The notes under the pieces: generated by a model
Told to the model about the DNA's origin: nothing
Databases searched by the model: none
The model's input: the letters and a program-made list of their open reading frames with translations, nothing else
In this document: one piece after another, positions 18,613 through 63,963 of the stretch
Layout: each line of letters begins with the position of its first letter
Position numbering within the stretch: the stretch's first letter is position 1
Assembly (NCBI GenBank): GCA_036852015.1
Contig: JAANDG010000317.1
Span: 103,716 to 167,715, forward strand
Origin: Pelodera strongyloides
Lineage: Eukaryota > Nematoda > Chromadorea > Rhabditida > Rhabditidae
Length of the DNA: 64,000 bases
Direction: 5' to 3'
Made by a program: the position numbers and the translations under genes

Positions 18613-19160
18613 CTGAGAATATTATTTACGTGGGTTTGTAGATAGAACACCAAACAAAGGTAAACATTTTCCGATGGAACACCTGAGACGTTCAATGGTG
18701 GCTAGTCGCTAGTGCTTTTACCTCTACTCACTAAACCAAAGCTCCAATCTAGCTCGTGACATCTGTTGACACCCTACGAGGGAAAATACATCTAAATGAC
18801 ATGTAAAGTGGTAAATCACTGGGTTATTAAACGTGTTTCGCAAGGCAAAAACATATATTCTTCCAACAGCCGGTTTTGAACGTATGCAAATAACTGCAAG
18901 ATACTGCCCGATTTTAATCTAACATAGGTGACTCTAGGCCCGCAGGCATGCATTTAAGCAAATATGCCCTAGGGCGTGCCCTTCAATTGTAGAAGGCCGG
19001 GATAAGGCCACAAACGGGGAAAACGTCGGTCCGAACCTCGGGCGTGCCCGTTACATGGCACTTTGCCGTAGCCTTGCATTTTATAAAGCGCGCGAAAATT
19101 GGGATTTAAAATTTTGTGAAGCAGCAGCCGTCATATTTCGCAACCAACAGAGACGACCAT

Positions 19161-19243
19161 GCGCGGTATGGCCGAGTGGTCTAAGGCGCTAGTTTGGAGT
19201 ACGTGTTTAGCTAATGTCGCAAGTTCGATTCCTGTCCGGTGCA
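19161..19243 (+). tRNA. Class II (Leu/Ser-type) tRNA-like sequence, left arm
   Basis: A box TGGCCGAGTGG with TCTAAGGCGCT, a long variable region and B box AGTTCGATTCC. The acceptor pairs only in part (GCGC.. with ..GTGC) and the anticodon stem is broken; the loop TTGGAGT would read GGA. Pol III promoter elements are kept while the cloverleaf is degenerate. It points toward the centre of the palindrome. Confidence 0.65.
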
Positions 19244-20442
19244 TTTGTCTTGCGAAGTTCTAGGTACTTATGTATGTTGTGTTTCCGTGTGTAAGTTCGT
19301 GGTTGGTTAGCTAAAACTGTGTATTTTCTTTTTCTGCCCGTTTCAAAACGGCCCGTTTGTGGCCCTCTCACAAAAGCCTCAGGGCGTACCCAGGGCACCT
19401 TCTAAGGCCGGTAACGGGCCAGCCCCGTTCCACAGAAAAGGGCACGCCTTCGGGCCTAGAGTCACCTGAGAATTATATTGTATACAGTAAAACTAAATGC
19501 AATTTTCCAAGATAAGCTTCAAAAACCGTCCGTTATATAGCTTTAAATGAAAGCAAAATCCATAAATTCGTCTGGAACCGTGGTTCCGAAAGTCATCTAT
19601 CTCCTTCAGTTGCTTCGTGTGGTTCCGAACCAACTTTTTTGAAATTTTCACTTTTTTTCCTCAGTTCAAAAGCCGGAAGTGTAACTAATGAACTCCAATT
19701 TTGGTGGGCAAACGAAGCGCAATTTTGGTTGCTATTTTTTGCCAATAATCTTTAAAAAAGGAGGAGTCCTCCGAGATTTTACAGCCTCTTGCAAACGCGA
19801 TCATCCTAATGACATTCTACGAAACTTGAAGCACATGCACATGCTGCACGATGAGATACTAGAAATAACTCAAATTAAGTAAAGTAAGCAAAATATCGGA
19901 GTCTACTGATATTATGATATTACCATAACTGTAAGAGCATGACACTACTTATGATATATTTATACTAATGAAAAGAAAATCGTGATGTTTATTGCATCTT
20001 TTCACGTAATAATTGCAGTTCCTGCAAACATGTGTAATTTATGTGGATAATGTTGGTGGAGTTGCGCAATTAGCATAATTTGTTTGATAAGGAACCTAAA
20101 AAGACAAATGTGTAGCGCGTCAACAACAAAGTTGCAAATGTAGGCTTTCGGAATACAAAAATATGTATATGCTTGTTTCTTGCATAAAATACAGCTTCGT
20201 AAAAGTGATACTAATCTCAGGTGACTCTAGGCCCGAAGGCGTGCCCTTTTCTGTGGAACGGGGCTGGCCCGTTACCGGCCTTAGAAGGTGCCCTGGGTAC
20301 GCCCTGAGGCTTTTGTGAGAGGGCCACAAACGGGCCGTTTTGAAACGGGCAGAAAAAGAAAATACACAGCTTTAGCTAACCAACCACGAACTTACACACG
20401 GAAACACAACATACATAAGTACCTAGAACTTCGCAAGACAAA

Positions 20443-20525
20443 TGCACCGGACAGGAATCGAACTTGCGACATTAGCTAAACAGGTACTCCAAACTAGCGC
20501 CTTAGACCACTCGGCCATACCGCGC
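20443..20525 (-). tRNA. Class II (Leu/Ser-type) tRNA-like sequence, right arm
   Basis: Inverted copy of the tRNA-like unit at 19161-19243, differing by one seen base (TACCTG for TACGTG). It is read on the minus strand, so the two units are convergent. Confidence 0.65.
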
Positions 20526-21504
20526 ATGGTCGTCTCTGTTGGTTGCGAAATATGACGGCTGCTGCTTCACAAAATTTTAAATCCCAATTTTCGCGCGCTT
20601 TATAAAATGCAAGGCTACGGCAAAGTGCCATGTAACGGGCACGCCCGAGGTTCGGACCGACGTTTTCCCCGTTTGTGGCCTTATCCCGGCCTTCTACAAT
20701 TGAAGGGCACGCCCTAGGGCATATTTGCTTAAATGCATGCCTGCGGGCCTAGAGTCACCTATGAAGGAATTCCAAATAACGCATCATGTAAGATACGGTA
20801 GATATTAGAATGATTTAGAAAAAAACAGTGTTTCCAATAAAAAAAGCACAGCGTTTTTCCCTTCAGGAAGAATATGTTTGAATGTTGAAATGTTTGTTGG
20901 AACGCAACGCTGCGAAAGCATCGCAACGCTACGCTATACACTATACATACTCCACCTTCCGAAATAATCGGAAGACCGTCTGTGGAAAGAAATTCAACAT
21001 TTAAATTCGTCTTATCCAATATCGGAACGTGTAACTATTAGTTCATTTGCCATTTACACATTCCCTGTTTGATTTGCACTTACAATTAGTAATTTTAGCT
21101 TACTTAGTTCATGCAGTCTGTGTTATTTTATCTTTCTACCGCAGGTGACACCCTTTTTCAAAGATTCAAATAAACAATTAAACATTTAAATTTAAATAAC
21201 GCAAATTATCAAAGTGCGTACGAGTACGGTAGAAAGTGTCTGGATTAATGCAAAATTCTACAAATTTATAAATAGTTTAATGTAATTAGCCCAACTGCGT
21301 AGACATTTCGATGCATTACAAAACACTTGTAGAGTAACTAAGAAGGAGTCATGGTTTCACAAAACAAGTCAAGTATAGAAAATATAGATAAATAAATATA
21401 ATAGAAACACAAAAAGGCAATTGATAAGAATATATTAAAGTATTAAGAAACATCTCAAGATATATGTCACATTAGAATTACGGTACCTAGTTTCGACCCC
21501 TAGA

Positions 21505-21615
21505 CCGAGGAAACGTGGCCGGTGCGCGGCCTACACCAGGCCCGAAATGGGTGGTGCGCAGCACCTGGGTCCACCTGTTTTTTTGTTGGCCGCACACCGG
21601 CCAAAGTTTCGCGTT
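21505..21615. mobile_element. CG-rich inverted repeat
   Basis: GAAACGTGGCCGGTGCGCGGCC on one side; its near inverse GGCCGCACACCGGCC then AAAGTTTCGC on the other, around about 55 bp. Likely the remnant of a TIR element. Confidence 0.6.
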
Positions 21616-22117
21616 GTAGGCGAGGATTTTCCGATCGAGGTGGTTCGCCATGGTGTATTGCTTTTGAACCAAAAATAAGTCTGTATTCAGGTAGTCAGTG
21701 GTCTAATATAAAAAGGAAGAATGTAAATAAAAAATAAAAAATGTGTCTGCAAGGATTTCGGGAAAAGCTCAACTTATGTCGCAACATCATTTTAAGTTAA
21801 TTTGCTAGAGGTCGTTTTGCCTTCTCCCGACTGCAAAAGTTGTTCCGAAATCGTCAAAATTTGATAAACTTCCCTCGCTCGGAAAATGAACGCCACAACA
21901 CAGAACACAAACATAAAGGAACTTTTTTTGAAAATTATTTCTTCCAGCTATTTCAACCTTAGAATTTAGCTTTACCAGCGTCTGGGCCTAGTAAATAAGT
22001 TCGATCGAAAATTATCTAATAAGCTCAACCGAAGTTGCAATTCAGATCACTGCGCAACGTAAGTCACTTTTTATTTCAATTTTTTATTCCACGATAAACT
22101 CAGGTGCGCGATGATCA

Positions 22118-22257
22118 GAGGCCATATTCATTACTCAATTCCCCGATTAGGAACTTCTGTCCTTTTCACTGCGATCCTCACTATAGAGTGGAGTGCTATT
22201 TTCTGTCCCCAGGGAAGATTTCCCGACCCAAAGGAATCGAGTAGTGAATATTCCCTC
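22118..22257. mobile_element. TIR element, GAGGCCATATTCA family
   Basis: Left end GAGGCCATATTCATTACTC; right end AGTAGTGAATATTCCCTC in inverse orientation. It carries TTCTGTCCCC and GGAAGATTTCC inside. Relatives are at 28887-29017 and 61622-61750. Confidence 0.75.
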
Positions 22258-22319
22258 AGTGTACAGCTTGATTCCAAAGGGAGAATATAAAAATCCTAAA
22301 ACGCCTATGTTTTATTTAA

Positions 22320-25105
22320 TTATTTATTTGTTTGTTTCGTTTGTGATGGTCCTCCACTTTCCGATTTCTCCTTTTCACTCAATTGTTTCTGAAGGGAAGA
22401 GACCATGGAACGCAGTTCGTCGATTGCACTCGCCTAAATATTATTTATAGTAATTACTCATCATTTGATGATAATAATTAGAGAACCAGAATTTCGGTTT
22501 TAAAGTGATATAAAGCCGTTTTTTTTAATGTATGTTGGACAACTGCAATTCCATATGATTGTATGAACTAGACTACGCTCATCCACTAGCAACTATAGTA
22601 ACGTTTCTTACGTATTGTATATCCACAAGCAGGCATTAGCATAGTGTTACATATTAGTACCAAAAATTCGCATACCTGCATGATAATATGATTCTTTGCA
22701 AGTAAAAGTGTGGCAATCTTGCTCAGTTTCCTCACAGAACTTCCGTGGGCATAGGGGATCACGGCTCTGAAAGTAATAGTAATTCAACAAATAATTTTAC
22801 TTCTTATACTTTAATATAATTTTCAAATGATTTTGGAATTTGGAATGGAGAGAAAAATTGCATTTTTGAACTGTTCTCACGAGAGCAAAATACGTATTTT
22901 CAATATCATATCATGAAAACTAACGTGGAGCACTTTTTCTGAAAAGGTTCTTTGGTGAAACTCATGATGGGATACAAAAGAACAAAAATTCGTCCCACCT
23001 GAGATCATCTAGTGCTTCATTCAGATCATGCATTCTGCATCTTTCTCTTAGGTTGATACTCATACGGACTCCGGTGTCTGTTGCACGCTGCATACACGAA
23101 GGCAACACTTCTGAACATATTAGTTGTGAATAAGATTGCTGAAACTAAAGCGGTATAACACTCGGTTTTCGAATGATTACTGGACAACGGAATTTCCATG
23201 TATGAAGATTGTGTTCCATTCTCCATCGGCCAGCACAGTAATTTAGGCAGTTGTACCTCATGTATCTCAAAACCAAGTGTCATACCAAGTTTACTATCGC
23301 GACAGAAAGTAAGCATCAATTATATATATAAAAAATGGATCGCAGCAACAGGCAACAGGAAAGGTGATTTTTATTGGAACAAGCGCAATGCTATCTAACT
23401 AAGAGTAACAAATAAATACAGGCCCCAGACAGTATAAAGCGGACATGACCCTAGACACTTAAACTACAGAAAGAATGAATATAGTAGAAAATGACATAAC
23501 TACAGTAAATATCCAAATAAATCAATGGCCCAGAAATCCAAGTAACACTAGCTAGGGCCCCCGCCCTACCGTATGCCCAAAGGCCCAAAGGGTCCCATGA
23601 TGAATGACATGCCGGGAAATCATAACTGACAACCGACTGGCGCCTTCATTTGTATAAGAATGGAATAGAGAAAGGGCCAGGAGACCTTTTCATTCTACTA
23701 TTCAAGATGCTACTCAATTGGTTCTAGCTATATGCCGGGTATCATATTCACACTATTTTCGTTGTTGTGATGTAGATTCTGAACGTAAAATTTCCCGGGC
23801 ATAATAATAATGAGCATCATGCCATGCGGTTGAAAAAGACGATAAATATTAAAGAATACAAGTGCAAATAAAATTTGTTTAATTATATATAAAATTATTT
23901 ATTTACATCCTCAAAATAACGTTATATTTCTTTTCATACGGTGCCTATTGGAATTGGCAAGGCATAGAACTCTACGAGCGTTTGCAAACACTTGAAATAC
24001 GAAAACTTGAGATTCTAACGAGTAACGCAATGGGTAACCAATATAATCTCTAATAATACGTGTGCATATTTGTAGTAATATACTTGTACTGCATTCAATT
24101 CATATTCATCAGAGAGTGCTCATTACCACAACGGAGATGCATCTCCCGATCATGTTAAATCACTTGAATATTTGAATACTAATATAGTGGCAAGAGGAGA
24201 TCAAACTGAGACCTTCTAGAACAAAGTAAATTACCAGTAACCGTAAAATCACATGTCATTTGTTTAACTTTTTCTATTCGAGTCAACCTCAAGTCTAATT
24301 GTAAGTCTAAAGATCTCTAAATTCTAAAGATCTCTATAAAGTCATAACTTCTAAACACGCTGATGTGTAATCCTAAATAAGCAGGTTCCAGATGAAATTG
24401 GTAGATAAAAGATAAAATATTGACCAGACAAAATATGGAATGAAATATTAAGAAGCAGAAAAGAAGAATCAGATTATGAATAAATTTTGGACTTACAGTA
24501 GTTTCCTCGAATACACTTTTGATGTTGATGTTATTGTTGTTGTTTCCTACGGATCCAGCTTTGTTCCCTGGGGGTATGATACCCCAGATTGTACCATCTG
24601 TGAGAGCTGGTAGGAAAGGCCAACTGGGGGTATCAACAGGGTGAGCCCCTAATAATATAACAGAGGATTAAGCCAAACACTAGTGACATTGCTTTTAAAA
24701 CTCAATCTACAATTCTCAAAAACTAAGGAACGAAAAACTACATTGAAAAAAGAAACAATGTTTATTATTCAACACTCATAAAATATTATACCAAATGTCA
24801 ATAAAACTCTTTTACTGAAAGCAAAAATGATAAAACTAGGTGCATACTGCAAAAACGATAATCATGCAAACAAAACCCAAAGCCAGTGATGACTTATAAA
24901 AATAGGAAATAGGAGGACGGGGTTTTTTACACTTCGTCGATAATATGAGAAAAAGAAACAAATAGGAATAAAAAATATATAAATCAAATACAATCTATGT
25001 AGGATAGGCTAAAACTGATGAAAAGTATTTCAATTGTATTCATATAAACCATTTGACATGCAATGTACCACAGAAAATATTACCTAGATTGGCAACCGTG
25101 TAAGG
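22320..25105 (-). CDS. Olig/Beta3-family bHLH transcription factor (5' end unresolved)
   Basis: Nuclear DNA-binding factor for E-box sites; vertebrate relatives are Olig and BHLHE22, nematode relatives the HLH-17/31/32 group. Exons: 25084-25105, 24551-24648, 22999-23138, 22676-22766, 22320-22433, with phases that join without error. The basic region and helix 1 ([18 protein letters not shown]) end exactly at an intron; the next exon carries the loop and helix 2 ([20 protein letters not shown]), which is diagnostic of this family. The last exon gives a leucine-heptad helix ([15 protein letters not shown]) and a Ser/Lys/Gln tail to TAA; AATAAA lies 3-9 nt after the stop. The first two exons encode a Pro/Trp-rich stretch. 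The 22-nt exon 25084-25105 is the least certain, and no start ATG upstream was convincing. Confidence 0.88.
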
Positions 25106-25632
25106 CTGGTAAAAGAAAATACAAAGAAAGAAAAGGATGAAAAATACTGCAAATTTAATGGGACAGACCCTTGTTCATTATTTTATACTAACATAAGACT
25201 GCCGATAATTATATGTAAACTAAAATTACCGTACCTATGGATCTGTTCGGTTTTTATCGCAATTTATAGGAATGATAGGAGGCTCAAAAGGTCATATATA
25301 TTCACAATCAATAAATGTAGCTAAAACACAGTCATGGGGTAAAACAATCTATGGCAAGGAATACTGTATGGTGTGTTTCTAAAACCACGAACTATTACGG
25401 TAAAGCAATTGTACTAAAAAAAGACATCCATAATTTGGCACATGTACCAGGCTTGCTGATAAGTTGATAATGCCTAATTATTAATGATAATTCGAAATAC
25501 ATAAGGCACAAACAAACGATACTAAAACTTGGATCCCTTACAAATATTAGTTCAACGAAAGATTTTCAAAGCTCAAAATGAAAGTGAATTACTACAACAG
25601 CCTGGAAACACTGGCGTTGTGTTCGCGAAAAC

Positions 25633-25803
25633 TTAAAGCGAAATGCTGGCCCCTTTGGAAAATGTGCATATGATAAGTAAATTCTATGTATCCTATGCTA
25701 ATTTTGTACGATTGCCGTGGACGATCGTACAAAATTAGCATAGGATACATAGGATTTGCTTATCATATGCAAATTTTCCAAAGAGGCTAGCATTTCGCTT
25801 TAA
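25633..25803. mobile_element. TTAA hairpin MITE, AGCGAAA..CTAGC family, copy 2
   Basis: TTAA-AGCGAAATGCTGGCCCCTTTGG at the left; inverse copy ending TAGCATTTCGCTTTAA at the right; central arms TGCTAATTTTGTACGAT. Same element as 6868-7038. It lies between the bHLH and the first transporter gene. Confidence 0.87.
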
Positions 25804-25972
25804 CATTCTCAAACCTAAAGTTTTCCAAATAAAGCCTAAAATAATGCATATATCGTACGTTACTACGCATCGCTCTCTTAGTGGTTAAAATACATTTTGC
25901 TGGGCTTTCCCTGTTCAATTAACACATTACCAATATAAAGATCAGGCACATTCTTGAAAATCCCCTCTCTAC

Positions 25973-36980: not shown

Positions 36981-37493
36981 CCATACACTCAAACTCAAGA
37001 ATTCCTAGACAGAATACGAATAAGAAAAAGGGATCAACAAATCTAATTGTAAGAGAAAGAGTAAGCGAAACTGAAATGAATGTGAAAAACCAGGCACAAC
37101 AAAGTCGCCACAACAACAAAGGCAGACAGACATGGATGGCCAAAAGTGTGCACACAGTATATTAACTATCAAAGAAGCCAGACTTCGAATACTCGTCGAA
37201 TTCCGAATTTATAAACATAAAATTTTGTTGTCTTACTTTCCTAGACTAGTTTTTTTCTCACAGTCACTTTTCAATATATCTCGCACGTATGTGCCTCACA
37301 AAAGTGTACAAAAGATGAATGAACATTTATAAAACCTCCAATACATTTGAAAAGCCAGACTATACAGGATTAAAATAAAATATGATTAGTATTTCAATAG
37401 TACACAAAAACCAAAAGAATAGTTCAAGTTCAAGCAGATTAATAGACAGGAAAATCTATATCATAAACAAGAAATACAACAAAAAGTGCACTA
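36981..37493. other. Gap, nothing recognised
   Basis: No exon, RNA gene or repeat pair seen between the nested palindrome and the large palindrome that follows. Confidence 0.5.
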
Positions 37494-37691
37494 ACAAGGA
37501 TATATAAGGCGTAGACGATGACCCACGCTACAAACTGCAACGCTACATGATAAAGTACATAGGAAAGCAGATCTGAGAAAAATAATACTGTACTATTTTT
37601 TATTTTGAAAGGGAGTTTTGGCCCCTCAAAGTTTGTGTTGTGCTCCATTTCAGGCCTTTGTCATATGCTGCCAGGGAGACTGAAAAGGTCA

Positions 37692-37760
37692 TCTCGTAGT
37701 GTAGTGGATAGGGTTGCAGGCTGCTGAGCGGAAGGTCACGGGTTCTACTCCCCGCTACTG
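37692..37760 (+). tRNA. tRNA-like sequence (class I, Val/Gln-type D arm), left arm
   Basis: A box TAGTGTAGTGGATAG and B box GGTTCTACTCC at tRNA spacing, with the GTAGTGTAGTGG block typical of Val-type tRNAs and AAGGTC before the T arm. The anticodon arm cannot be folded with a 7-nt loop and the acceptor ends barely pair. tRNA-derived; functional status doubtful. Confidence 0.6.
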
Positions 37761-38761
37761 AAACTATTTTTGCATTTTTTTTCCGATATTTTTTTTCCAA
37801 CTTATACCTTGAATAATTTATGGAAAAACAATTATTTTTGTATTTCAACAACTTTAGGAATGTCCATGGCCCATTTATGCACTATTCCGGGCAAAAAACA
37901 GGTAAGTGATTTTTCCAATTTTATCATGAAATCACTGATGGTACCCATGGTGGAAACATCAGCCGAAAATTATATGATGGTAAACAACAACAAAATGACT
38001 CTGAAGCATAACCTTCACAGTTTCAGAGTTCCATAAGATTGAAAATTATGTATATTTTATCCTATATGACTTATTGGAGATTCTGACCATGTGTTGGAGT
38101 TCATAAAAGAAGCGATCTACGTGACCTTCTGCAGCAACTTCGTAGCACATATAGACTTCCTCTCCTTGAAGATGACACACACTGACAAAACACGACAAAG
38201 AACGACACGCAACATTGAATAATATATTTCCTTCTAGTTAGGTTAGAGTTCGGAGAATGGCAGGAGGGCCCCCATAATTCGCCTTTTCGCTTCAAATTTT
38301 ATTGTAGATTGTGTGCCGTGATTTAGCAGTGTGTGCCATCTTGAAGGAAAGGAAGTCTATCGAATTCTACACATGGTCACAGAATCTGTAGAAGGTCACA
38401 TAGATCTTTCTTTCATGCTCTCACATCAGAAACACATAATCAGAAACTCCAATAAGTCATATAGAATAAAATATACATAATTTTCAATCTTATGTCTTAT
38501 GGAACTCTGAAACTGTGAGGTTGTGCTTCAGAGTCTTTTGTGTGTTTACCATCAATATTTTCGGCTGAGTTCCACCATGGTTACCATCAGTGATTTCATG
38601 ATAAACTTGGAAAAATCACTTACCTTTTTTTGCCCGAATAGTGCATAAATGGGTCATGGACATTCCTAAAGTTGTTGAAATACAAAAATAATTGTTTTGC
38701 CATGAATTATTCAAGGTATAAGTTCCAAAAAAAATCTCGGAAAAAAATGCAAAAATAGTTT

Positions 38762-38831
38762 CAGTAGGGGGGAGTAGAACCCGGAACCTTCAGCTCAGCA
38801 GCCTGCAACCCTATCCACTACACTACGAGAT
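38762..38831 (-). tRNA. tRNA-like sequence, right arm
   Basis: Inverted copy of 37692-37760 with a few changes (GGTTCTACTCC kept, GAGCTGAAGG for GAGCGGAAGG). Convergent with the left unit. Confidence 0.6.
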
Positions 38832-39169
38832 GACCGTTTCAGTCTCCCTGGCAGCATATGACAAAGGCCTGAAATGGAGCACAACACAAACTTTGAGGGG
38901 CCAAAACTCCCTTTCAAAATAAAAAATAGTACAGTATTATTTTTCTCAGATATGCTTCCCTATGCACTTTATCATGTAGCGTTGCAGTTTGTAGCGTGGG
39001 TCATCGTCTACGCCTTATATATCCTTGTAAGCTCCTAATTGTAAGGCCCAAGCGAAAATTGAAAACAGAAAGACCTAAATGTGTCCTAATATAACAATCG
39101 TAGAATAAAGTCACAAGTGAAAATAGATGCACTTCTTTGACTATACTAATTTACTTTGCATCTCAAAGC

Positions 39170-44700: not shown

Positions 44701-44886
44701 TATACTCACTTTAATGGGCTCTCCTCGTACATCACCATCAAGATACACATAACAAATTTCATAATCTGAAAAGCATAAATTAAAGTTCAATTCATAGCTC
44801 TTCTCATTCTATCAACCCCCTCAAAATAGGAAAGCGCGAGAGTTCCTAAGAAAGTAAACTGTTGTGCATAATAATAATAATTAATG

Positions 44887-44985
<99 letters not shown>

Positions 44986-48092: not shown

Positions 48093-49490
48093 TTATGACG
48101 AGAAAAAGCTCATATGTTTGTACTTGTGGAACCTGTACAACATTTTGTCCAGTTCGACCGGTTAATTATGATATCGATAGTATCTTTCCAAGCTCTTCAA
48201 AGGTTCGCATAACTGGTTTAGAGCCTGAGCGCGCGCGTGGGAGGGGAGGAAAACAAGCGTGCTTTGGTCAAAGATCGGTACGTACCTTTGTTACTTTGTT
48301 TTAGTTAAATTTACCATTAATATAAAGTTGAAAGACAAGGAACTCGTGAAAAAAGTAAGAAAAGATGCAAATTTCCAAAGAGCTTATAGATATTCCCAGC
48401 TCAAAATTCGTCACTACTACGGGAACACGATTTTATATTAAAAATCGAGCTATTCACAAACTAGACAGTTTGTGAAAATTTGAAAATTGAAAAGAGGAAA
48501 GAGGACGGCCAAAAAAGGATTTAATCAAATGAGATCACATCTGCCAAATGACCGAATAACGACCACAATTATACAGCGCAGAAAGAAGACGTCGCAACAA
48601 CAAAAAAGTTCATATTCGGCCAAAGGAAAGAATCAAAGAATAAAGCAAAAAGAGGTCTGCACGTCACTTTTTCTCAATTTTCAGTCCTGAATCTAAGGAC
48701 TACGCCCAAAAAAGGTTCTGGTCTATTGTTAGAACTTGGAATGACAATAAGCTCAATGTCTTTGAGACTAGCACTACCAAGCCAAACAGATCTCGGATTC
48801 AGATAGCGCATTGTAGAATGGAGAGCGCCGAGAAAGAGAGAGGTGAGAGTGAGTGGACATCTGAGATACTCGGGATGCAGAGAGAGGGGAGAGAGAAAGA
48901 AGATTACAACAGACATCGAATGGTGGAAAGCCGGATCCAGTGACGAAAAGACTTCAGATTTAGATCTAACAAGGAATGAATGAATGAACACTTTTGTAAT
49001 GTTCCGAGCCGCAGTCGGCTAAATTAAGGCACACAAACGCTCAGCTCAGTCAGAGTCAGTTAAAGGAGGGTTATGGGAAATGAAACTTCTTTTGAAAAAT
49101 TGAAGACATTTAGTATCCAAAACATCAAAATGGTATCTTATGGAACGAAAATGCACAAAAGAAATAATTGGAAGAATATAAGCACTTGGAGACTGGAGAC
49201 TACACTTATTAATGGAACTGGAATAATGAAGCACGATAAAAATTCAACCCACACCTAAAAAGAGCTGGCTACTTATTTTGTGGCAATTGATTATCGACGG
49301 CAATGGTGCCAGCAGTGGGGACGTGGGGAGCAGATCTGGTAAAAAAATAGTGCGCACATCTGCGTCACGAAACTGCGAGCATCTTATTATATAAAGGAGA
49401 AGAGTTTGTCACGGGTTTGTTTTTATGTGCACAACGAAATCCCTTCATAAAGAAAATTCTTCGATCGAAAGAGAATACAAAATCTTTGTC
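48093..49490. other. Gap, no supported gene
   Basis: Contains K/Q/R-rich small ORFs and an AG-rich stretch at about 48820-48900. No exon or RNA gene recognised. Confidence 0.4.
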
Positions 49491-49569
49491 GCTGGCGAGA
49501 TTCGAACCCACAGCAGCACACAACCTCTCGATTCACAGTCCGACGCTCTACCGGTTGAGCTATGCTAGC
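49491..49569 (-). tRNA. tRNA-His(GTG)-like sequence
   Basis: Minus strand: a well-formed D arm (AGCTCAACCGGTAGAGC), anticodon loop CTGTGAA with GTG, B box GGTTCGAATCTC and a T stem that pairs with two wobbles (GTGGG/CTCGC). Against this, the anticodon stem lacks a base, the variable region is too long (about 17 nt) and only part of the acceptor pairs (GCTAGC../..CAGC). Probably a tRNA pseudogene or tRNA-derived repeat; not inside an evident palindrome. Confidence 0.5.
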
Positions 49570-49766
49570 TTTTATAGGGGTAGCAATATGCTCTACATAA
49601 CGTCAATGGCAAATTTGCATGGTAGCATTAGTCGAGTGGAGATCCAAACTGATTATTATACGTTTCCACAATCAGAGACGTGTGAATGTAAGTGGCACGG
49701 AAGAGAAAGAGACGAGAGTTAACTTTTTACATTGTAGCAATTCTTTTTTCAAATAGGGAAACAATC

Positions 49767-49826
49767 GGCCGAAGGCCGATTCCTCCAGTCGGAGAAGAGC
49801 CCGTAGGGCTCTTCGAACGGCTGGTA
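49767..49826. repeat. Two adjacent strong hairpins
   Basis: ATCGGCC-GAA-GGCCGAT (49767-49783) and, within a longer stem CCAG..CTGG, GAAGAGCCC-GTA-GGGCTCTTC (49795-49815). Both stems are perfect with three-base loops. Confidence 0.85.
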
Positions 49827-51063: not shown

Positions 51064-51183
51064 CAAAGCGCTACGGTACGTGGTTTGTGCGTTGTGTTCC
51101 ACTCTATGCAGGAAAACAGGAAAACTACAGAAAAATTTGCATGTTGGCATACATAACAAAACCACGTGCCGTACCGCTTTGAA
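51064..51183. mobile_element. TIR element, CAAAGCGCTACGGTACGTGGTTT ends
   Basis: CAAAGCGCTACGGTACGTGG at the left; inverse AACCACGTGCCGTACCGCTTTG at the right; about 120 bp. The ORFs on both strands here are arm translations. Confidence 0.82.
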
Positions 51184-52731
51184 CAATGTTCGCTACTTCT
51201 TACCCTCAACATCCCTAATGAAGTATAAATCCAAATTCAGAACAAAAAGGGGAAGAATAGTTGCAATTTGCAATACAAAAAATATGGAACAACTGAGCAA
51301 ACACACAAGTATGACTGTCGTATTCTGATCGATTATTGATTGCGAGCATATACTTCTATCAAAGCCGCACAGGCGACACCTCCAGAAAATACTCACTCAT
51401 GGAAAACGATTTTCCAACAAACAAATAATCATTCACCACACCACAACTCAATTACCAATAATGGGAAGAAATTCGAAAAAAAGTCACACGCTAAACTGAA
51501 AAATCGTAAAATTTCAAGAATATCGAACAACTGGAAGTAGAACCCTACATTGAATTTATAAACACACACTAACAAAGACAAGGGCACGTAAAATGGAGAA
51601 ATTATAAAAGGGCACTCGGAATCAAATATCGGTTCTGCACATTTTTGGACATAGAAAGTGGTCTTTTTGACGTAGACTATTTTTTTATAGTTAAGAGTTA
51701 CTGACAAATAGATACACTGATGAGTCGAAAAACTGGTCTAACTAACATATATGAATAATAATTATAAAACAACTTATGGATACTGTAAAGTGGAGGACGG
51801 GAGAACTACAGTACCCGTCAAATTAGCATATTTGTAGTTCATATTAATAGTTAGGAGGCACCCTGATCGGACGTTCACAACGCTTCTCGACCGGCCGCAC
51901 ACTCGCCGCCGGGCAGGAAAAGAACAACTGTAGCAGTTGGAGCAAGGGAAGGGAGAGTTATAACAGTATGTACAGAGAGAGGGACCAAAGTGTACGGTAG
52001 CGGGCGGGTAGGTCCCTAGTAAGGGCCAATGGCAGGCCGGCCATATCTGGCCCGGACGCCCACCGAGTGGAACATTAAAGGTGCCTTGCAGGCGGTAACC
52101 CCAGTTTTCGGATCAAGTTTTCACACGCAACGTATAATACAGCTGACAAGCACGCACATGCCATACCGCCCTAACAAAATTAAAAGGTCTTGGGGTTTTA
52201 AGTAAACACTTTGATGTCCCACCCGCTAACCCCGCCCACACAACCCACGCAAAGTCCCGAATCCTCCTCCCACCAGCGAGACCCGACATTTTGAATGAAG
52301 ACACAGAGGGAGAAAATGAGAATGTGAGAAAGAGAGGTGGGACGGATAACAACAAACGAGTGAATAAAATAGTATAACAATGTAATAATAATAAACTAGT
52401 AAGAAGCCGTCTGTCTTACTACCAACAACAAGCAAGTGAAGGAAGGCATTTGTGGCGATTGACACACTGATAGCGTATCAGGAAACCACCGAGGTGGGGA
52501 AAAGGCACTTGGAATACAAGTTAGGAGAAATGTCAGAAGAAAATGTAAGTAACTTGTTTTAGTATATTACAGGATTAGGCTCACAAAAACTCACTGATGA
52601 TGAAGTTTTAAGTCATGATATTGGTTGAGTCTGATCGTGAGCCTGATCCTTTAAAAATAATTTAATCGAGTTGATGTACCGGGAAATAGTGCATTTAAAA
52701 AATACAAATATGAACTTCCTGGGGTGAGCAG
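51184..52731. other. Gap downstream of exportin-T
   Basis: Mixed AT-rich DNA and a moderately GC-rich patch (51860-52110). No exon or inverted pair of note. The exportin-T stop is at 52732. Confidence 0.4.
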
Positions 52732-55700: not shown

Positions 55701-58700
55701 GAACTTCTCTCCAAGAGTAGTCGCCAGTTCAGAAATGTATTGACTCTAAAAAAATAAGGCATGTCACGAAAATCCGATAAAACTAAAAGACATAAAATAA
55801 TAATAACATATATCTAAATGTAGCCCTAGTGTATCAGCAATCAGTAGTCAGCACTATTTTTAAAGACAGTATAAAATGATAAACAATGAAAATGAAAAAT
55901 GATAAACCTTCTGTTGCATGTCAAAGTTGGAAAATGCGATAAGTGTGGTTGTGGCCTCGAAGATAAATCCCTGGTCATCAGAAGCTATCATGCAATGCTG
56001 CGAATCCGGTGACACAGCCAGAAGCGGGGCCAACCGAGACACAACCTGAATAAGTCGAGTGTAGATTGGCAAGTTCAAATGTATGTTAATACACCTAATC
56101 AATTTCAAGTCGAGCCAAGTGCCGTAAAAACCACAGCAGCACTAAGCCCTAACACCCACCCCACCCCCTTCAAAAAACAATAAATGAATAAATTACAAAA
56201 TTACTTAACAGACAATTCCCCACCTATGATAACGAGCTAAGATCTATCTTGAACATACGAAGAGGACAATAAATCTTACCTCTGACACCAAAGGACTCAG
56301 GACAGCCTTGTGCGCCTTCACGAATCTCACAAAGAGATAGACAATGCGGGAGCGCACCTTAACAAACATTTTGAAAAAAAAAACATTACAGAAATACTAA
56401 TCATATAACTAAAACTAACAAGAAATATCGAACAAACGCAAAAACCAACCTTCTCTAGTCGGAAGGCGATTCCCCTTTCATCCAAAAAGGCGGCGCAAAT
56501 GAGACGAACAGCATTATCCGGAGATGTGCCAATCAACTTGTCATATCTGCAATTGCAACAACATAATTATTTAATCGTGGTGCCTAAGCAGTTATCACAC
56601 AACGATGACTTCGTAAAGAGCATTGTTACGTTAGAAGAAATGTAACCGGTGATATACAAATAAAATTTATACTAGTATAGCTTCTCCATAACGACAGAAA
56701 CTTCGAAACAACTACACTACTGACCTGCATGCATTTTCAAAGAACATCACGTGAACTTGAGCGCATTGACAGTTCAGAGGGACAGCGTCAACTAAAATTC
56801 ATATTTCGAGTTAGAAGTGAGGACTTACCTTTAACACAATAAAAAGTAGTCAACAATTTGTGTACAGACAAAAAAAATCAATAATCCATTATCCATCCAC
56901 CTACCCAATCGTAATGGGAGTCGTGCAGCCCGCGCCAGAATCGGGTCCTTCGAGATGGTGAAATTCGCCTAAATGAACCATTCATACATAAAAAAAGGTG
57001 GTGAAAACATGAATAAACTCATTATGTTTCAAGGAAACAATAATATCTGTTCATTTTCATTGTTGACAGTAAGTTGTTGACTTGTTGACTTGTTGACAGT
57101 AAGTTCGAGTAATTCTCACGGGGATAATTTCAGCCAGCGAATATACGAGTTGCACAATTGCCTCCACTGGTTGCACCTTCATTGTCTGTGCCTCGGCGGC
57201 CATCTTCTCAAGCATCTGCTCGAGGGGCTCAATGATGAGGAGGGGACGCTAAATGGGACTCATTGTATAGTGAAACAACAATAACATTGTGTGTTCTTAT
57301 TTCCGATTGACGGCGCTTGAGCTTCGGGCTCGGTGCACAAAGTCTTATATATTATACAATGGTGAAAGCAATTCAACGTCACTTGTACAATAAATAATCA
57401 AATCCTATATAAAATAACAATCATATAATGACGACTTACCCTCATTCCGATCGGGTTGAGCAGTGATCTCAGTTGTCTCCGATACTCCATAAACTCATTG
57501 ATTGTTTCCGATTCGTTGTCCGGATGCAAATCATTCGGCATCGCATATCGACACAGGCAAATGGCGACAATTCTTGCAAGAACGGCAAGGTGATCCTAGA
57601 ATAATAAAGCTTCAAAATTTTGACTGTACTAGACCGGGTCACTTGACCATGAGCAATACAATCAACTGTGGGGACAATTCTATAAACTGAGCAGTATATA
57701 AACAGCACATAATAAAGAATGTGTTTAGGCGACACACGCACTATGTGCTATGCACACTGCGTGTCAATTGCCCGGCCAGAACATTAAGGTCAACGACCAA
57801 CCTAATTTAATTGACTATCGGTCTAAAATATCAGTTCATAAAGACTCACTGCATCCTCGCGGTGTCGCACCCGATGTACGTATTCTTTGAAGAACTCGAT
57901 CACAATCTGAAATGTTTGTACATATACATCGTTTTTTTAGCATTCCGATAATTATTGAGAACGGTTTTGAAATTGAACCCGTTTATACACAAACAACGGT
58001 TATAAATCAAAACATATTTCTACATGTTGTTATAAATATACCAGTCGAGTCGGCTAAAGCCAGACTGATGGTCGGGAGGTGGCGGGTTCGAATCTGGCTG
58101 AGACCGAGAATTTTGAGTTCTTTTACTTTAGCACACCGAACGTTGCATAATAATATGTGCAATAATCCCAACCCCACACCAACTAAAAACCAACCTCGCT
58201 ATTATAGTAATCGGGGTTATCCAGGACATGGAGTGCTGTGGGCACAAACTGTTCGGCGATCGACAAACAACGGACCGCGTCTGCTTCCGAGCCACCATCA
58301 GAGGCGATTCTGAATATCAATTATATAAGTTTCTGTGGGCATCTTTGTGATGTAATAAACTATAGTTATTATTATAAAATTCATTAAAAAAAGTCAATTA
58401 TCTCAAACAGCCCCACAAACTTTAAAACTCTACATCTACACGTTCGTTAACACTTTTATATATTCCCGGAGAAAGTCAAAACATCAAATGGTAACTTTAC
58501 ACCAAAAAAGTTAGCAGGAAATGTAACACAAGCAAGCACAACCAGTTTGTTACGCCGTCGACCAGGATTTGGTTTGGAACAACGATCAAAAACTGGAATC
58601 AAGTCGCCATCGGCTAGCACTAGCATTTGATATCTTTCGGATTTCGGAAGACAGCAGTACCACATATACTCATTAAACTACTTATATGCTTTACAATCAT

Positions 58701-61700
58701 TGCATGTTATATTTTATAGTATTTGTCCATTGACATATATTATTTCCCGACACTAAAAAAATAGTCCAACGCACATCGTCCACAAAAAAAATACGTTATC
58801 AAAAAATGTCAAGCACACAGTTACAAACATCAATATCTTACGAAAAAGAAACAAACACATGAGCACGTCACCAAAGTGTCTTTCTAAGGTCTAGGTCTAC
58901 TTAGCTTAACGCGCAAATTTATCGCCCATGGCAAACACCGCTTCAACCAACAGGTTTTCCCCCTCACTCAATGCAAAATGCCGTCGGAAAGCTGCCATTA
59001 TAGGAGAGGGGATTTTCATTTCACCCTTTCGTTCTTGTATCACCGCGGACAGGATATATCCTAGTGCATCACAGCTACTTTTTTTTAATTTCAAAACGTT
59101 ATGTGTGCTTCACCACTATTTTTTTAACAAAAAAAATCATCTTCTCGTTTTTGCTTCCATGAACACGCTTTTTATTTGCAAAATTGCAAAACATTAAATA
59201 AGCATTCTTGCTTATAATATAATAAATTCTTTTTCAGGCCTTCAGGACGAAAAGAAAAAGTGCAAATAAATCCGCCTACAATTTCACGTATTCACTGTTT
59301 ATTTCCTACCTTCATTTTTCTAATCGGTCCCCTTTCACTTCCGAACATCAACCTATCCTGCATAATCGGAAGACACCCCGTCTACAATACAAATGGGAGA
59401 ACTATTAGAGAGAATCTTTGGCCGGTCGCCAATCAATCAACTTTCACTTTTGTTGGCGACAATCGTGTGTACATATGTGCAACAAGCGAATGGACAATGG
59501 AACCCTTGCGACTCGCTCATTTGTGATCCACCAAAGAGGTGCGTGGTGGAAAACGAGGTGGGTAACTGATTTACATAGTATATTTAGCCTGGATGATCTT
59601 TTTCACAAATAGGCCGAGATGATGACGAATGGAAATTTATGAAAACGCGGCATTCTAGCTAATTACCAATACAAATATCATTTTTTATAAAGAGGAACCA
59701 AGCCGGGAGATATGAAAAACCTGCTAATTACCTAGAGCTAAGTACCAATGTCGTAGCGAGCAACCGAGTAGCCAAGAAAACAGTTGGAAGAAATTCAGCA
59801 TAGCTTCAGCAGTTCTCACCATCCCCAGGGCCCCAGCAAGTGTTTATCGAATCGAGCAACTTCAGAAAATAACATGATATTTTTTCATCTAATAATTCCA
59901 CTCAATCACAGATCGCCCAGTGTTCTGCTTTGAATAATGGTAACTCCCTTCTCGGGGCATCCTCCCCGGTCTTCCCGACAGCTTCACCTTCACTGACTTC
60001 GCCACCCGTATTCCCACCACCGCAGCCCACACCAGCCCCCAGTGGTCCTCAGTTTCCAGGAGCACAACAACAAATAGGTAAGCCGAAAGATTAAAATGCT
60101 CGTGGCCTAAATGTGATAACACATACCAATACCATAACTTGTATTTCCATTCAATCAGTCAAAGTTATTTTGGGCCACGCCTCATTTAAAATTGCGATAC
60201 CCATTGCCGCACGTCTTCCTTAAATATAATAAGTGACGTCTTGTTCAGGCTTCCCAGCAGCCCCTGCTCCCAACACTCCTCCGCCTTTCTTCGCTGGGCT
60301 CCCTCCGGCACAACCGCCTCCTACATTCCCTCCCCAACCACCTCCACCCCAGGCTCCTCAGCCTCCAGCAGCGGTTACTCCCCCAACCGATCCATTCGCA
60401 AATATTCTACAGCTATTCAGGTACTCGTAAGAAAAGCGGTACGCCCAAGTGGTTTTAAAAGAAAGCCACAACTATGTTTCCATGGTCATCTCTGGCGAAA
60501 TGCGAGGCAGTTGTCCGGCACAAGTGTCAAAACAAGTCCGGTATTTAGTGACATGCAGGCTATAATTTCCATGCGTAATTTCGGAGACGGTCGCTTAGTT
60601 GAGAGTCGAACCGTAAATTACTACTGATACGTTTAACCCAAATCTATATATTTATGTTGAAGGTAGCAAACAGTAACATTCTTCCGGCTAATAAAAACCG
60701 AAAATCAAAACTGAACGTCGAGGAAACACATCGAAGTGCATTTCATTGTCTTTTATCTATCCATTTCAGCTTCCCCACGCTGCCTACACTACCACCAATA
60801 ACGCCCCCACCACCTACAACAACTACATCGGTTCCACAACAAAATATATGTCTGATGCCTCCTCTCACGGGGACATGTGGCAGGGCCAGGATCATGTGGT
60901 TAGTATATTAATTTTCTGGCTCTGCAAATACTGAATATATATTTCTCAAGAGAAAGCGCCGAATGCGGATGACAACCTCCCGATCTCCCGGTCATCACCC
61001 GTCTAGGTGAATCACCCGAGACGGTATCACCTCCCAAAATTTTTGAGTTGCAGACCTAATTTACGCCCTGCTGGGTTGTACCGTAAACCAACGATTTTCA
61101 CTTACAGGTACTACGATACAGAAACAGAAGGCTGTGAACGGTTTTCATTTTCTGGTTGCGGGAATGGGAATCGATTCGAAAGTCGGGCGGCATGCGAGAG
61201 GAGATGTCTCAGGAAACAAGCCATGTTAATTAGGAACTAATCAACGAATAAAATAAATGGATGACCAATCACAAATATAAGGGCAAGTCGCACTGTCGCA
61301 CACAAACGAACAACAATAAAATACGCGAATGAAAGGAACAGGACAAGAAAAAAAGATTCTGAACTCACTTGCTCTGCACATCTAGCAGCTGGTGACCCAT
61401 AATTGAGATGAGGTTTCCAATTCGTTGCACGTCATCTTCATCCACGTCGCCGTCCTGTAAAATCAGTTGATACTTGATACTTCAGAATGCCAAAAAAGCG
61501 TGCTTTTATGTATATGTTCTCTCCCATATGAGTTCACATTTCTTTAACTAAGTAGCGATAATAACCCAGAATTGAGAAAAACGATAGGTGCGCTGCTCTT
61601 GCAAGAGCCTTGCACAGTACAAAGGTTGTATTCACCGACACAGGGAGCCCTCCCTAGGCTCACGAGCGCTCGAAATCTCTCCTGCTCTCGAACTCTTTAG

Positions 61701-63963
61701 CTCCCTGGGGTGGCCATGGAGGGCTCTCTGCGTGTTGGTAAATACGGCCTCAGGACTGCTCTTTCCTTTCGAGCCGGCCACGTTCGTATCGTAGTGAAAA
61801 TGAGCTACATACAACAAGTTACAAGTTACAGTACCCGTAATTACAGCCTTCGATATTCCCCACTCTCTTCTAACAAACCGAACATGCTAGAAGTCATCGC
61901 GTCCATTAAGAATAAGAAAAGAAAAAGGCGCACCTCATCGGGGGTCAGTGTGAGAAGTTTGCCGTTGTTCATCACTTCAACAAGTGCAACCACTAAAGTC
62001 AGCTTCTTCGAGGAAGGCATTCCCTTCTGCACAAGCCCCTCCACAGTGCGAATCGCTGACTAAAGGAATCGAGTTTTCTGTGAAATCATGAAATGAAACA
62101 AGCATACCTAGTATAAAGACCCGACGGCATAGTCTCACCAGGGATTTATTTTCTATGTCGCCGTTTAGAGGTGAATCTGTGTAGGCCACGTGAAAAGGCA
62201 TAGTTTCAGCTACATTTTCAATAAATAAAAGTGTTCGTTATATTTTTCAGAAGCGAGTAATTGGCCTTCAGAATTTTTAGCACGTTATGTGTGTAAGGCA
62301 AAAAACGGCTAAATATTTAGTTGCCAGATAGCAATTTTCAGTCATTGGTAGTATAGTGGTGAGGGCATGGGATTGTCAAGACGACGGTCAAGGGTTCGAT
62401 TCCTCTATAATGAATTTTTTTTTGCAATTTTTTGTATGTCTAATTTTGCATTAAAGCGCTAATAATTATGCTTAGTTACTTGTTTTCGACTTTCAAACAC
62501 TTTCCTAGTGTGAAAAACAAACATACCTACCAACCAATACCAAAAAATGAGAAAAAAAATTTCCAAGATTTTCTGATAAAATCATGGTCCACTACATGGA
62601 AAAATTTCGATGCCATAATATAAATTTTTTTAATGAATATTTATTTGCAACACGGGTCGTAACACTACGGAAATCGATAATAAAATCCTTGCTTGATTAG
62701 AATGTGCGCAGACAAGGAGAATTACGCCGCGCCATGATAATGCCATTGGGCTCCTGATCGTTTCATAGTTGGTTGTGCATGGCTAAACAAACTACAAAGT
62801 ATAAACTTTGTAGTTTAGGCTAGTACACATTGGTGGAAAGCATTGAAGCAACTTATATATTCGGTTCACTGACCAAAAATGATCTTCGACGCTGCCGAAG
62901 TAGTTTCACTGTTCAAGGATGTGTTTGGTACGTTCGCCGGACCTCTGCTTCCTTCTCATTTAGAGTGGGAGCTATCTGATAGCTTCTCAACAATACTACG
63001 TGGTATTCTTGAAGGAGAGGTATTTGTCAGAGGAGCTGCAACGAGACGAACCAACAGTCAACAGTGGACGACGACATCATTCTCCTTGTCTGCGCACATT
63101 CTGATCAAGTTATTTTTTTCAAGCATTTTATTATCGATTTCCGTAGTGTTACGACCCGTGTTGCAAATAAATATTCATTTAAAAAATTTATATTATGGCA
63201 TCGAAATTTTTCCATGTAGTGGACCATGATTTTATCAGAAAATCTTGGGAATTTTTTTTCTCATTTTTGGGTATTGGTTGGTAGGTATGGTTGTTTTTCA
63301 CACTAGGAAAGTGTTTGAAAGTCGAAAACAAGTAACTAAGCATAATTATTAGCGCTTTAATGCAAAATTAGACATACAAAAAAATTGCAAAAAAAAATTC
63401 ATTATAGAGGAATCGAACCCTTGACCGTCGTCTTGACAATCCCATGCCCTCACCACTATACTACCAATGACTGAAAATTGCTATCTGGCAACTAAATATT
63501 TAGCCGTTTTTTGCCTTACACACATAACGTGCTAAAAATTCTGAAGGCCAATTACTCGCTTCTGAAAAATATAACGAACACTTTTATTTATTGAAAATGT
63601 AGCTGAAACTATGCCTTTTCACGTGGCCTACGCAGATTCACCTCTAAACGGCGACATAGAAAATAAATCCCTGGTCAGTTTCAAGCAACAATCCTAAAGA
63701 AATACACATGAAAACAAAACAATAAAGGTATAGATAAAACAAAGAACAGCGAAATATTCAGGACTCCGCTATGCAGAACAAGGGCAACTTTTAGGCGAGA
63801 AAAATATTTTTCCACATACATCATCAGTCTCCGAGTTTGAAAGTCCTTGTACAAGAAGTGGTACAAATCGATCGTTTGCAACTAGTTCCACGTCAATCCA
63901 ATCGACATACGCAGCCACCACATCGTAGACTAGACAACGAGCATCCACGTCTTGAATCGTCTC
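52732..63963 (-). CDS. XPOT: Exportin-T, tRNA nuclear exporter (N-terminus outside window)
   Basis: Importin-beta-family carrier that takes mature tRNAs out of the nucleus with Ran-GTP. Twenty-two exons (759 aa plus stop, all phases consistent): 63820-63963, 61934-62059, 61369-61454, 58195-58309, 57850-57906, 57440-57595, 57120-57248, 56905-56968, 56725-56791, 56450-56546, 56280-56357, 55908-56045, 55600-55745, 55288-55366, 54982-55074, 54591-54701, 54201-54320, 53839-53914, 53550-53665, 53316-53411, 52992-53093, 52732-52815. Diagnostic blocks collinear with human XPOT: YVDWIDVELVANDRF, LVQKGMPSSKKLTLV, FMEYRRQLRSLL, LVYSLAEIIP, AAFLDERG, VRSRIVYLFVRFVK, SDDQGFIFEA, HRMVVCLE. About 200 N-terminal residues are missing to the right. 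One intron (58310-61368) contains a whole opposite-strand gene; another (62060-63819) is almost filled by a tRNA-bearing palindrome. Confidence 0.95.
58023..58105 (+). tRNA. tRNA-like sequence (anticodon loop GAT) in an exportin-T intron
   Basis: D-arm-like GTCGAGTCGGCTAAAGC, anticodon stem CCAGA/TCGGG (4 of 5 pairs) around CTGATGG (GAT, Ile), B box GGTTCGAATC and T stem GCGGG/CTGGC (4 of 5). A matching acceptor stem is not evident. It lies antisense in the intron between 57906 and 58195. Confidence 0.5.
59393..61240 (+). CDS. Secreted Cys-rich, proline-rich, Kunitz-domain protein (complete, 254 aa), nested in exportin-T
   Basis: Five exons, phases consistent: 59393-59557, 59912-60077, 60249-60420, 60770-60898, 61108-61240. 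The start ATG gives a hydrophobic signal sequence (about residues 17-34, ending in ANG) and follows a TTTTTCAG site 155 nt upstream. Order: a four-Cys unit (C39, C44, C50, C59; CDPPKRCVVEN), a Pro-rich linker (about 70-193) and one C-terminal Kunitz domain with Cys 195, 204, 220, 228, 240, 244. Kunitz domains usually inhibit serine proteases. Here the residue after the second Cys (P1) is Gly205 and the Cys4-Cys5 gap is 11 instead of 12, so inhibition is uncertain. AATAAA begins 6 nt after the stop, so the 3' UTR is very short. The whole gene sits in the 3.1-kb exportin-T intron 58310-61368 on the other strand. Confidence 0.9.
61622..61750. mobile_element. TIR element, GAGGCCGTATTTACCAACACG family, in an exportin-T intron
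   Basis: Left GGTTGTATTCACCGACACAG then GGAGCCCTCC; right GGAGGGCTCTCTGCGTGTTGG then TAAATACGGCCTC, inverse. Related to 22118 and 28887. It lies in the intron between 61454 and 61934. Confidence 0.8.
62342..62413 (+). tRNA. tRNA-Asp-like sequence, left arm
   Basis: Acceptor TCATTGG with ATAATGA pairs 6 of 7 (one wobble); the TAGTATAGTGG D-arm block and B box GGTTCGATTCC match eukaryotic tRNA-Asp. A loop TTGTCAA (GTC) can be placed, but its stem does not pair. Acceptor and promoter elements are kept and the anticodon arm is lost. Confidence 0.65.
62879..63115 (+). CDS. Unrecognised coding-like ORF in the loop of the palindrome
   Basis: From ATG at 62879 a frame with ordinary protein composition runs through the loop (MIFDAAEVVSLFKDVFG.., then LLPSHLEWELSDSF.., ILRGILEGE). 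The better reading may stop at a GAG/GTATTT donor at about 63020, since beyond it the frame becomes Thr/Ser-rich and enters the right arm, where it stays open to 63229. It resembles a first exon or a captured gene fragment. I recognise no family. Confidence 0.3.
63399..63470 (-). tRNA. tRNA-Asp-like sequence, right arm
   Basis: Inverted copy of 62342-62413; I saw no difference between the two. Convergent with the left unit and co-directional with exportin-T transcription. Confidence 0.65.

What the first reader, a model, noticed from the sequence alone, without database searches (positions are those of the whole stretch)
18923..63675. Recurrent architecture: long palindromes carrying a convergent pair of tRNA-like units
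At three places (18923-20763, 37494-39028, 62137-63675) a 1.5-1.8 kb palindrome has a tRNA-derived sequence in each arm, always oriented toward the loop. The arms are unrelated between loci and the tRNA families differ (Leu/Ser class II, Val/Gln-type, Asp-type), so one element did not simply spread. A and B boxes are intact while anticodon arms are not, as expected if pol III promoter function or RNA structure, not decoding, is kept. Convergent pol III transcription across a hairpin could give dsRNA. Alternatively, tRNA loci may provoke inverted duplication, or this is a class of foldback elements with tRNA promoters. Palindromes with tRNA-derived arms are not a named class I know.
Basis: partly seen in the sequence, partly recalled or inferred. 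Interest (0 to 1): 0.85.

Follow-up and report, generated by a model that had tools for sequence, protein, structure and literature searches.

The report
Palindromic nematode transposons carrying tRNA promoters
Two of the three palindromes are copies of related, short mobile DNA elements of a nematode whose two mirror-image arms each carry a decayed tRNA gene with its promoter boxes kept, while the third is most likely two separate tRNA-bearing elements that landed near each other in opposite directions.

Summary
The three palindromes and their inward-facing tRNA-like units are real, but they are not one kind of thing. B (37495-39027) and C (62138-63674) are mobile palindromic elements: copies at other sites keep the same ends and have an identical 3-bp duplication TNA inside CTNAG (12 of 16 distinct B places; 12 of 18 C loci), so they look like PIF/Harbinger-type, non-autonomous, long-TIR elements. 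B, C and two further families (B2, C2) are one diverged lineage. The unit sits about 200 bp from each end, and a T-run follows box B in 44 of 44 arms tested. Of 77 places parsed from capped match lists, 60 hold a convergent pair, 17 a lone unit, none a divergent pair: the orientation is inherited. A (18923-20763) is two inverted copies of another 548-bp TIR element around single-copy DNA. Boxes A and B outlast the cloverleaf, which fits a kept TFIIIC/Pol III promoter; the T-runs argue against dsRNA from convergent Pol III. The nearest precedent seen is C. elegans CeRep3, tRNA-pseudogene repeats bound by TFIIIC without Pol III (PMC6950938, abstract and passages). New variant of a known kind; function is inferred.

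The parts
18923..19470 (+). Family A element, copy 1 (548 bp, begins CATAGGTGAC, ends GTCACCTGAG; flanked by AA on both sides)
19160..19244 (+). Leu/Ser-type tRNA-like unit in A copy 1
   Evidence: ARAGORN; Rfam 21.3 bits; box scan
19471..20215 (.). Spacer between the two A copies: single-copy host DNA
   Evidence: 20 matches, one full length (itself), 19 others of at most 77 bp
20216..20763 (-). Family A element, copy 2, inverted; no matching 2-bp flanks of its own
   Evidence: L002
20442..20526 (-). tRNA-like unit in A copy 2
37492..37494 (.). Target duplication TAA (target CTAAG), left of B
   Evidence: L031
37495..39027 (.). Family B palindromic element, 1533 bp, ends CAAGGATATATA
37697..37751 (+). 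B left tRNA-like unit, box A to box B, followed by T-runs
38771..38825 (-). B right tRNA-like unit, box A to box B
39028..39030 (.). Target duplication TAA, right of B
   Evidence: L031
62135..62137 (.). Target duplication TCA (target CTCAG), left of C
   Evidence: row win
62138..63674 (.). Family C palindromic element, 1537 bp, ends CCAGGGATTTATTT
62342..62414 (+). C left tRNA-like unit, Asp-type loop TTGTCAA in the family consensus, T-run after it
63409..63463 (-). C right tRNA-like unit, box A to box B
63675..63677 (.). Target duplication TCA, right of C
   Evidence: row win

Best explanation
B and C are copies of two families of one lineage of short, non-autonomous, palindromic (long terminal inverted repeat) DNA transposons of a nematode. 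A transposase acting in trans moves them into CTNAG, duplicating TNA. An ancestor took up a tRNA gene (Asp-type, judged by the anticodon loop of C and C2) about 200 bp from the end of what became the repeated arm, so copies carry two convergent units. The cloverleaf decayed, but box A, box B and the T-run stayed: the units most likely persist as TFIIIC-binding type 2 Pol III promoters that give at most short, self-terminated transcripts; TFIIIC on both arms may keep the element open for the transposase or form an extra-TFIIIC-like chromatin site. A has another origin: two 548-bp single-unit elements inserted nearby in opposite orientation. SHOWN: repeat families, ends, duplications, lineage, orientation counts, box conservation. 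INFERRED: transposase class, tRNA uptake by the ancestor, TFIIIC binding, any benefit. The stated confidence is for anatomy, mobility and origin; for the TFIIIC step alone I hold about 0.45.
For: Repeat families: 141 matches, 40 of 151 candidates scored; 138 matches, 40 of 51 scored. TNA in CTNAG on both sides: B 12 of 16 distinct places (29 loci, many of them refetches), C 12 of 18 loci, B2 3 of 3 read by eye. B-C inner arm z 6.2, tRNA block z 12.3; B/B2 versus C/C2 blocks score 47-64, but 17-40 against the A and D units. 60 convergent pairs, 17 lone units, 0 divergent. Boxes 19-20 of 22 identical between B/B2 and C/C2, other tRNA positions 29-32 of 50, rest of arm 211-234 of 445-469; boxes versus rest p 0.00055 or less. 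T>=5 within 60 nt of box B in 22 of 22 B and 22 of 22 C arms. Precedent: TFIIIC on tRNA-pseudogene repeats of C. elegans, PMC6950938 (abstract and passages).
Against: No transcript, ChIP or small-RNA data. The tRNA block is not everywhere the best-conserved stretch: windows as good or better number 123 of 510 (B-B2), 33 of 510 (C-C2), 10 of 510 (B-C). Boxes versus other tRNA positions is only p 0.007-0.047, uncorrected, on an alignment the boxes may anchor; other tRNA positions versus rest p 0.04-0.13. B2-C2 outer arms show no homology (z 0.9); C2 rests on one locus (L074). No transposase was tied to these ends: the one Harbinger-type locus read (4 kb) has no matching ends. N in TNA is any base, whereas PIF/Harbinger duplications are usually TWA (recalled). 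The window copy of B has one box B mismatch in each unit. For A, the outer flanks of the pair also match (AA, rows L001/L002), so one move of the pair as a whole is not excluded.
Confidence: 0.7

Rival explanations
1. Same mobile elements, but the tRNA units are passengers: caught when the ancestor formed, copied with the arm, without any role.
For: Stems are decayed and window copies score below Rfam's cut-off. In close family pairs the block is not specially conserved. tRNA-like units are frequent in this genome (16,725 loose first-look candidates of which 63 were scored; 4 in 115 kb of flanks), so capture by chance is easy.
Against: Across B/B2 versus C/C2 the boxes outlast both the other tRNA positions and the arms, and a T-run follows in 44 of 44 B and C arms. 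Three other element families here (A, E, D) also carry a unit with both boxes.
Confidence: 0.4
2. Convergent Pol III transcription across the palindrome makes dsRNA that feeds siRNA pathways.
For: Units face the loop in all 60 pairs counted; the arms are near-perfect complements.
Against: T>=5 within 60 nt after box B in 44 of 44 arms should end transcripts long before the middle, and two such short transcripts are the same strand of the same repeat, not complementary. A Pol II read-through hairpin remains possible but needs no tRNA unit.
Confidence: 0.05
3. tRNA loci provoke in-situ inverted duplication, giving palindromes without transposition.
For: Arms within a C copy are more alike than copies are; the D dimer L083 is a tail-to-tail inverted pair.
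Against: Fixed ends and TNA target duplications at scattered sites are the mark of transposition; B, C, B2 and C2 share ancestry.
Confidence: 0.03
4. A tRNA-derived SINE inserted in an arm that was later duplicated.
For: A tRNA head followed by a conserved T-rich GCA-containing tail in all four family consensuses.
Against: Homology between B/B2 and C/C2 continues inward in 4 of 4 and outward in 3 of 4 comparisons, so any insertion is older than the split. Insertion duplications around the unit were not looked for.
Confidence: 0.07

Closest known systems
CeRep3 repeats / extra-TFIIIC sites of C. elegans (PMC6950938; abstract and passages seen)
   Same: Interspersed nematode repeats suspected to be tRNA pseudogenes; [quoted passage not shown]
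   Different: The passages seen do not describe CeRep3 as a palindrome, a TIR element or a convergent pair; no CeRep3 sequence was compared here, and TFIIIC binding is untested in this genome.
Palindromic transposon-related repeats of C. elegans (Dreyfus and Emmons 1991; seen only as a citation in PMC3212995; not held) and palindromic MITE-like elements of Anopheles gambiae (PMC3212995, passages)
   Same: Palindromic, non-autonomous, inverted-repeat elements; the Anopheles ones are of similar size.
   Different: The main text of PMC3212995 holds 'tRNA' 0 times; tRNA units in the arms are not part of that description.
PIF/Harbinger MITEs (features recalled)
   Same: 3-bp duplication beginning with T and ending with A inside a palindromic CTNAG target; TIRs; no frame of 120 aa or more lies inside the window copies.
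   Different: N is any base; the TIR spans the whole arm; a tRNA unit lies in each arm; no linked transposase found.
tRNA-derived SINEs (features recalled)
   Same: Box A and box B type 2 promoter and a T-run.
   Different: Target duplications are 3 bp at a fixed motif, ends are inverted repeats, units lie about 200 bp inside and come as an inverted pair.

Membership tests
MITE / non-autonomous TIR DNA transposon | Terminal inverted repeats at fixed ends in many copies | tested here: met
MITE / non-autonomous TIR DNA transposon | Target-site duplication of fixed length | tested here: met
   TNA in 12 of 16 B places and 12 of 18 C loci; the others have a damaged, diverged or unmatched end
PIF/Harbinger superfamily | 3-bp TWA duplication in a CTNAG-like target | tested here: inconclusive
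   TNA in CTNAG, including TAA and TTA but also TCA and TGA
PIF/Harbinger superfamily | Mobilised by a Harbinger (DDE_Tnp_4) transposase with matching ends | tested here: inconclusive
   9 domain matches exist in the genome; the one locus read (4 kb) shows no matching ends; the others were not read
tRNA-derived SINE | Variable-length duplication, no TIR, tRNA promoter at the 5' end | tested here: not met
   3-bp duplication, whole-arm TIR, unit about 200 bp inside
CeRep3 / extra-TFIIIC repeats | Both box A and box B in a dispersed repeat | tested here: met
   definition from PMC6950938
CeRep3 / extra-TFIIIC repeats | Bound by TFIIIC without Pol III | not testable with these tools
   no ChIP data
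CeRep3 / extra-TFIIIC repeats | Sequence homology to CeRep3 | not tested
   no CeRep3 sequence at hand

The most novel reading that the evidence does not exclude
In this nematode, a tRNA-derived TFIIIC/Pol III promoter is a working part of DNA transposons: it is kept by selection in both arms of a diverged palindromic lineage (B, B2, C, C2) and was taken up separately by other element families (A, E, D), so that transposition seeds the genome with paired, convergent extra-TFIIIC sites that can act as chromatin boundaries or as open doors for the transposase.
Probability: 0.3. Interest if true: 0.72.

Novelty: new variant of a known kind. Interest (0 to 1): 0.5.

Why it matters
In C. elegans embryos half of the identified TFIIIC sites (504) lack Pol III, and 214 of those overlap CeRep3 tRNA-pseudogene repeats (PMC6950938, abstract and passages); their role is open. 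A lineage of mobile palindromes that spreads such boxes, with datable insertions and a clear CTNAG target, gives that question a direct test: do insertions create TFIIIC sites, and do the boxes help the element move? It also warns that tRNA scans and inverted-repeat scans of nematode genomes will meet such elements.

Tried and rejected
(1) Treating A as a mobile palindrome: its spacer is single copy, so no repeated palindromic unit exists; but the outer flanks of the pair both read AA and copy 2 lacks matching flanks of its own, so a single joint move of this one pair is not excluded. (2) Independent origin of B and C: rejected by homology outside the tRNA block; B2-C2 outer arms gave z 0.9, the one of eight outer/inner comparisons across the two groups without support. 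(3) dsRNA from convergent Pol III: disfavoured by T-runs. (4) Finding the autonomous partner: Pfam PF13359 gave 9 matches; the 4-kb stretch around the best one has no matching ends and its protein matches no other fetched locus; an ends pattern with up to 2 mismatches is near its control (182 forward and 162 reverse against 149 and 151), and its listed exact hits are mainly known C copies. (5) Pfam on five window ORFs: nothing. (6) Naming the species: only 'nematode', from 315 exact SL1 22-mers against 0 in the control; the 18S search did not complete. (7) The 2-bp duplication of A holds in 20 of 30 copies; ten lack it, unexplained. (8) A first script for the A ends misplaced them and gave 10 of 30; one search replaced it. 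(9) Literature: ten searches of open-licence PMC papers listed no paper that I recognised, from titles and abstract starts, as describing tRNA units in the arms of palindromic DNA transposons; most subscription papers are not held.

Rows dropped: one search used 65 of the 141 matches and 50 of the 138; mirror-strand rows of the same place and small fragments were left out by hand, and those lists are themselves capped. The alignments used 11 B and 11 C copies (22 arms each), chosen for intact ends; B2 rests on 3 loci and C2 on 1. Background flanks come from 28 A and 11 B loci only.
Full report
Observation. The window lies in contig C317 of a 159.9-Mb genome in 1171 contigs. Exact matches to the nematode spliced leader SL1 (22-mer recalled) number 315, control 0, so the host is a nematode; the species was not identified. 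Three inverted repeats match the report, and a scan for box A plus box B (at most 1 mismatch) finds 8 units, six of them in three convergent pairs inside these repeats; six Markov resamplings of the window gave none.

A is not a repeated palindromic element. Its arm alone is a dispersed 548-bp element: 45 matches with 40 of 280 candidates scored; 41 of the 45 cover nearly the whole element at 87-100% identity. Thirty fetched copies share the ends CATAGGTG..CACCTGAG, and 20 of 30 have a matching 2-bp flank (expectation about 2, binomial p about 1e-15 at p 0.08); the other ten are unexplained. In the window two such copies (18923-19470 +, 20216-20763 -) flank 745 bp of DNA with no other full-length match; the 19 other matches are at most 77 bp. 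No other close inverted pair of two full copies appears among the 45 matches (C697 has a full copy next to a 156-bp inverted fragment). I read the pair as two insertions, perhaps a local hop; since the outermost flanks both read AA and copy 2 lacks flanks of its own, one joint move is not excluded.

B and C are palindromic mobile elements. B: 29 fetched loci are 16 distinct places; 12 show the same trinucleotide TNA on both sides, each inside CTNAG; the other four have a damaged or missing end. Two of the 12, L035 and L037, share flanks in opposite orientation and are probably one site on two contigs. C: 12 of 18 loci, the window copy included, show the same; L063 and L066 lack both standard ends, L064 and L065 have one altered end, and L075 and L076 are diverged and were not paired by the pattern. 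A further family, B2, shares with B the tRNA unit and everything inward of it (70-77% identity) and also lies in CTNAG in 3 of 3 copies read by eye.

One lineage. Arm consensuses of B, B2, C and C2 (a diverged C subfamily, here from one locus, L074) can be aligned with the unit at the same place. Local alignment scores against 200 resampled sequences support homology outside the unit: B-B2 inner z 55, outer 5.1; C-C2 inner z 41, outer 50; across the two groups inner z 5.7-6.2, outer z 4.2, 5.8, 4.2 and 0.9. The tRNA blocks of the two groups score 47-64 against each other, but 17-40 against the A and D units. So the architecture of B and C was inherited. From the match tables, 60 of 77 places hold a convergent pair, 17 a lone unit, none a divergent pair (rows chosen as told in Tried and rejected; the lists are capped, so these are not genome totals).

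What is kept. Between B/B2 and C/C2, box positions agree in 19-20 of 22, other tRNA positions in 29-32 of 50, the rest of the arm in 211-234 of 445-469; boxes versus rest p 0.000035-0.00055, boxes versus other tRNA positions p 0.007-0.047, other tRNA positions versus rest p 0.04-0.13. The stems are decayed: in the C consensus the acceptor stem has 6 of 7 pairs, the anticodon stem 2 of 5; in B2 the acceptor stem has 1 of 7. The anticodon loop of C and C2, TTGTCAA, holds GTC, pointing to a tRNA-Asp origin (tRNA-Asp features recalled). All 22 B arms and all 22 C arms tested have T>=5 within 60 nt of box B. Against this: windows of the arm as conserved as the tRNA block or better number 123 of 510 for B-B2, 33 of 510 for C-C2 and 10 of 510 for B-C.

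Age and conversion. Arms of one C copy differ by 1.5% on average (0.2-4.2%, 11 copies), copies by 4.5%. For B the gap is smaller: 2.9% (0.4-8.8%) against 4.1%, and 3 of 11 copies have arms further apart than copies are on average. C arms are thus close to identical when a copy lands, which suggests arm-to-arm conversion or copying of one arm during movement, and some insertions are recent; for B this is only suggested.

Wider setting. Single-unit families also exist: E (about 555 bp, window about 7971-8528, 40 of 994 candidates scored, 97-99% identity) and D (about 450 bp, window 49381-49826). A and E share only 25 bp, the box A region, and D matches neither, so they seem to have taken up their units separately. 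One D locus, L083, is an inverted dimer with convergent units.

Mechanism. The anatomy fits elements moved in trans by a transposase with a CTNAG preference, PIF/Harbinger being the nearest class (recalled). Nine DDE_Tnp_4 matches exist in the genome, but none was tied to these ends; one locus was read. The kept boxes fit TFIIIC binding. In C. [quoted passage not shown] the sites cluster in autosome arms near H3K9me3 regions (PMC6950938, abstract and passages). B and C may be this species' counterpart with a clear mobile, palindromic anatomy; homology to CeRep3 was not tested.

Verdict. Real, mobile, and a variant of known palindromic MITE-like elements; the retained paired tRNA promoters are the unusual part. 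The claims of independence and of dsRNA are not supported.

Noticed in passing
7971-8528: Family E: abundant element of about 555 bp with GC-rich inverted subrepeats and a Leu-type tRNA-like unit at 8189-8251 (-); 994 first-look candidates, 40 scored, 97-99% identical.
   Followed up: partly
49381-49826: Family D: element of about 450 bp with an Asn/His-like unit in the middle; L085 and L089 show 9-11 bp flanking repeats by eye, unlike B and C.
   Followed up: partly
L083 541-1432: Inverted tail-to-tail dimer of family D, a palindrome of about 890 bp, 97% self-complementary, with convergent units; how it formed is unexplained.
   Followed up: partly
4741-5102: Near-perfect hairpin, 172-nt arms with 18 nt between them and no tRNA unit; sub-threshold miRNA-precursor matches in Rfam.
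   Followed up: no
6867-7041 and 25630-25804: Inverted copies of a 175-bp hairpin-forming repeat 18.6 kb apart.
   Followed up: no
G000:C42:120181-130667: Array of at least 26 high-scoring tRNA genes on one strand, often 288 or 308 bp apart.
   Followed up: no
G000:C26:1276-12412: Tandem array of SL1 sequences about 600 bp apart; many other SL1 22-mers are scattered.
   Followed up: no
L035 and L037: B copies on contigs C593 and C71 share flanks in opposite orientation: the same site on two contigs, an uncollapsed haplotype or a duplication.
   Followed up: no
58042-58095: Weaker tRNA-like unit (+), 2 mismatches, a level that resampled sequence also reaches.
   Followed up: no
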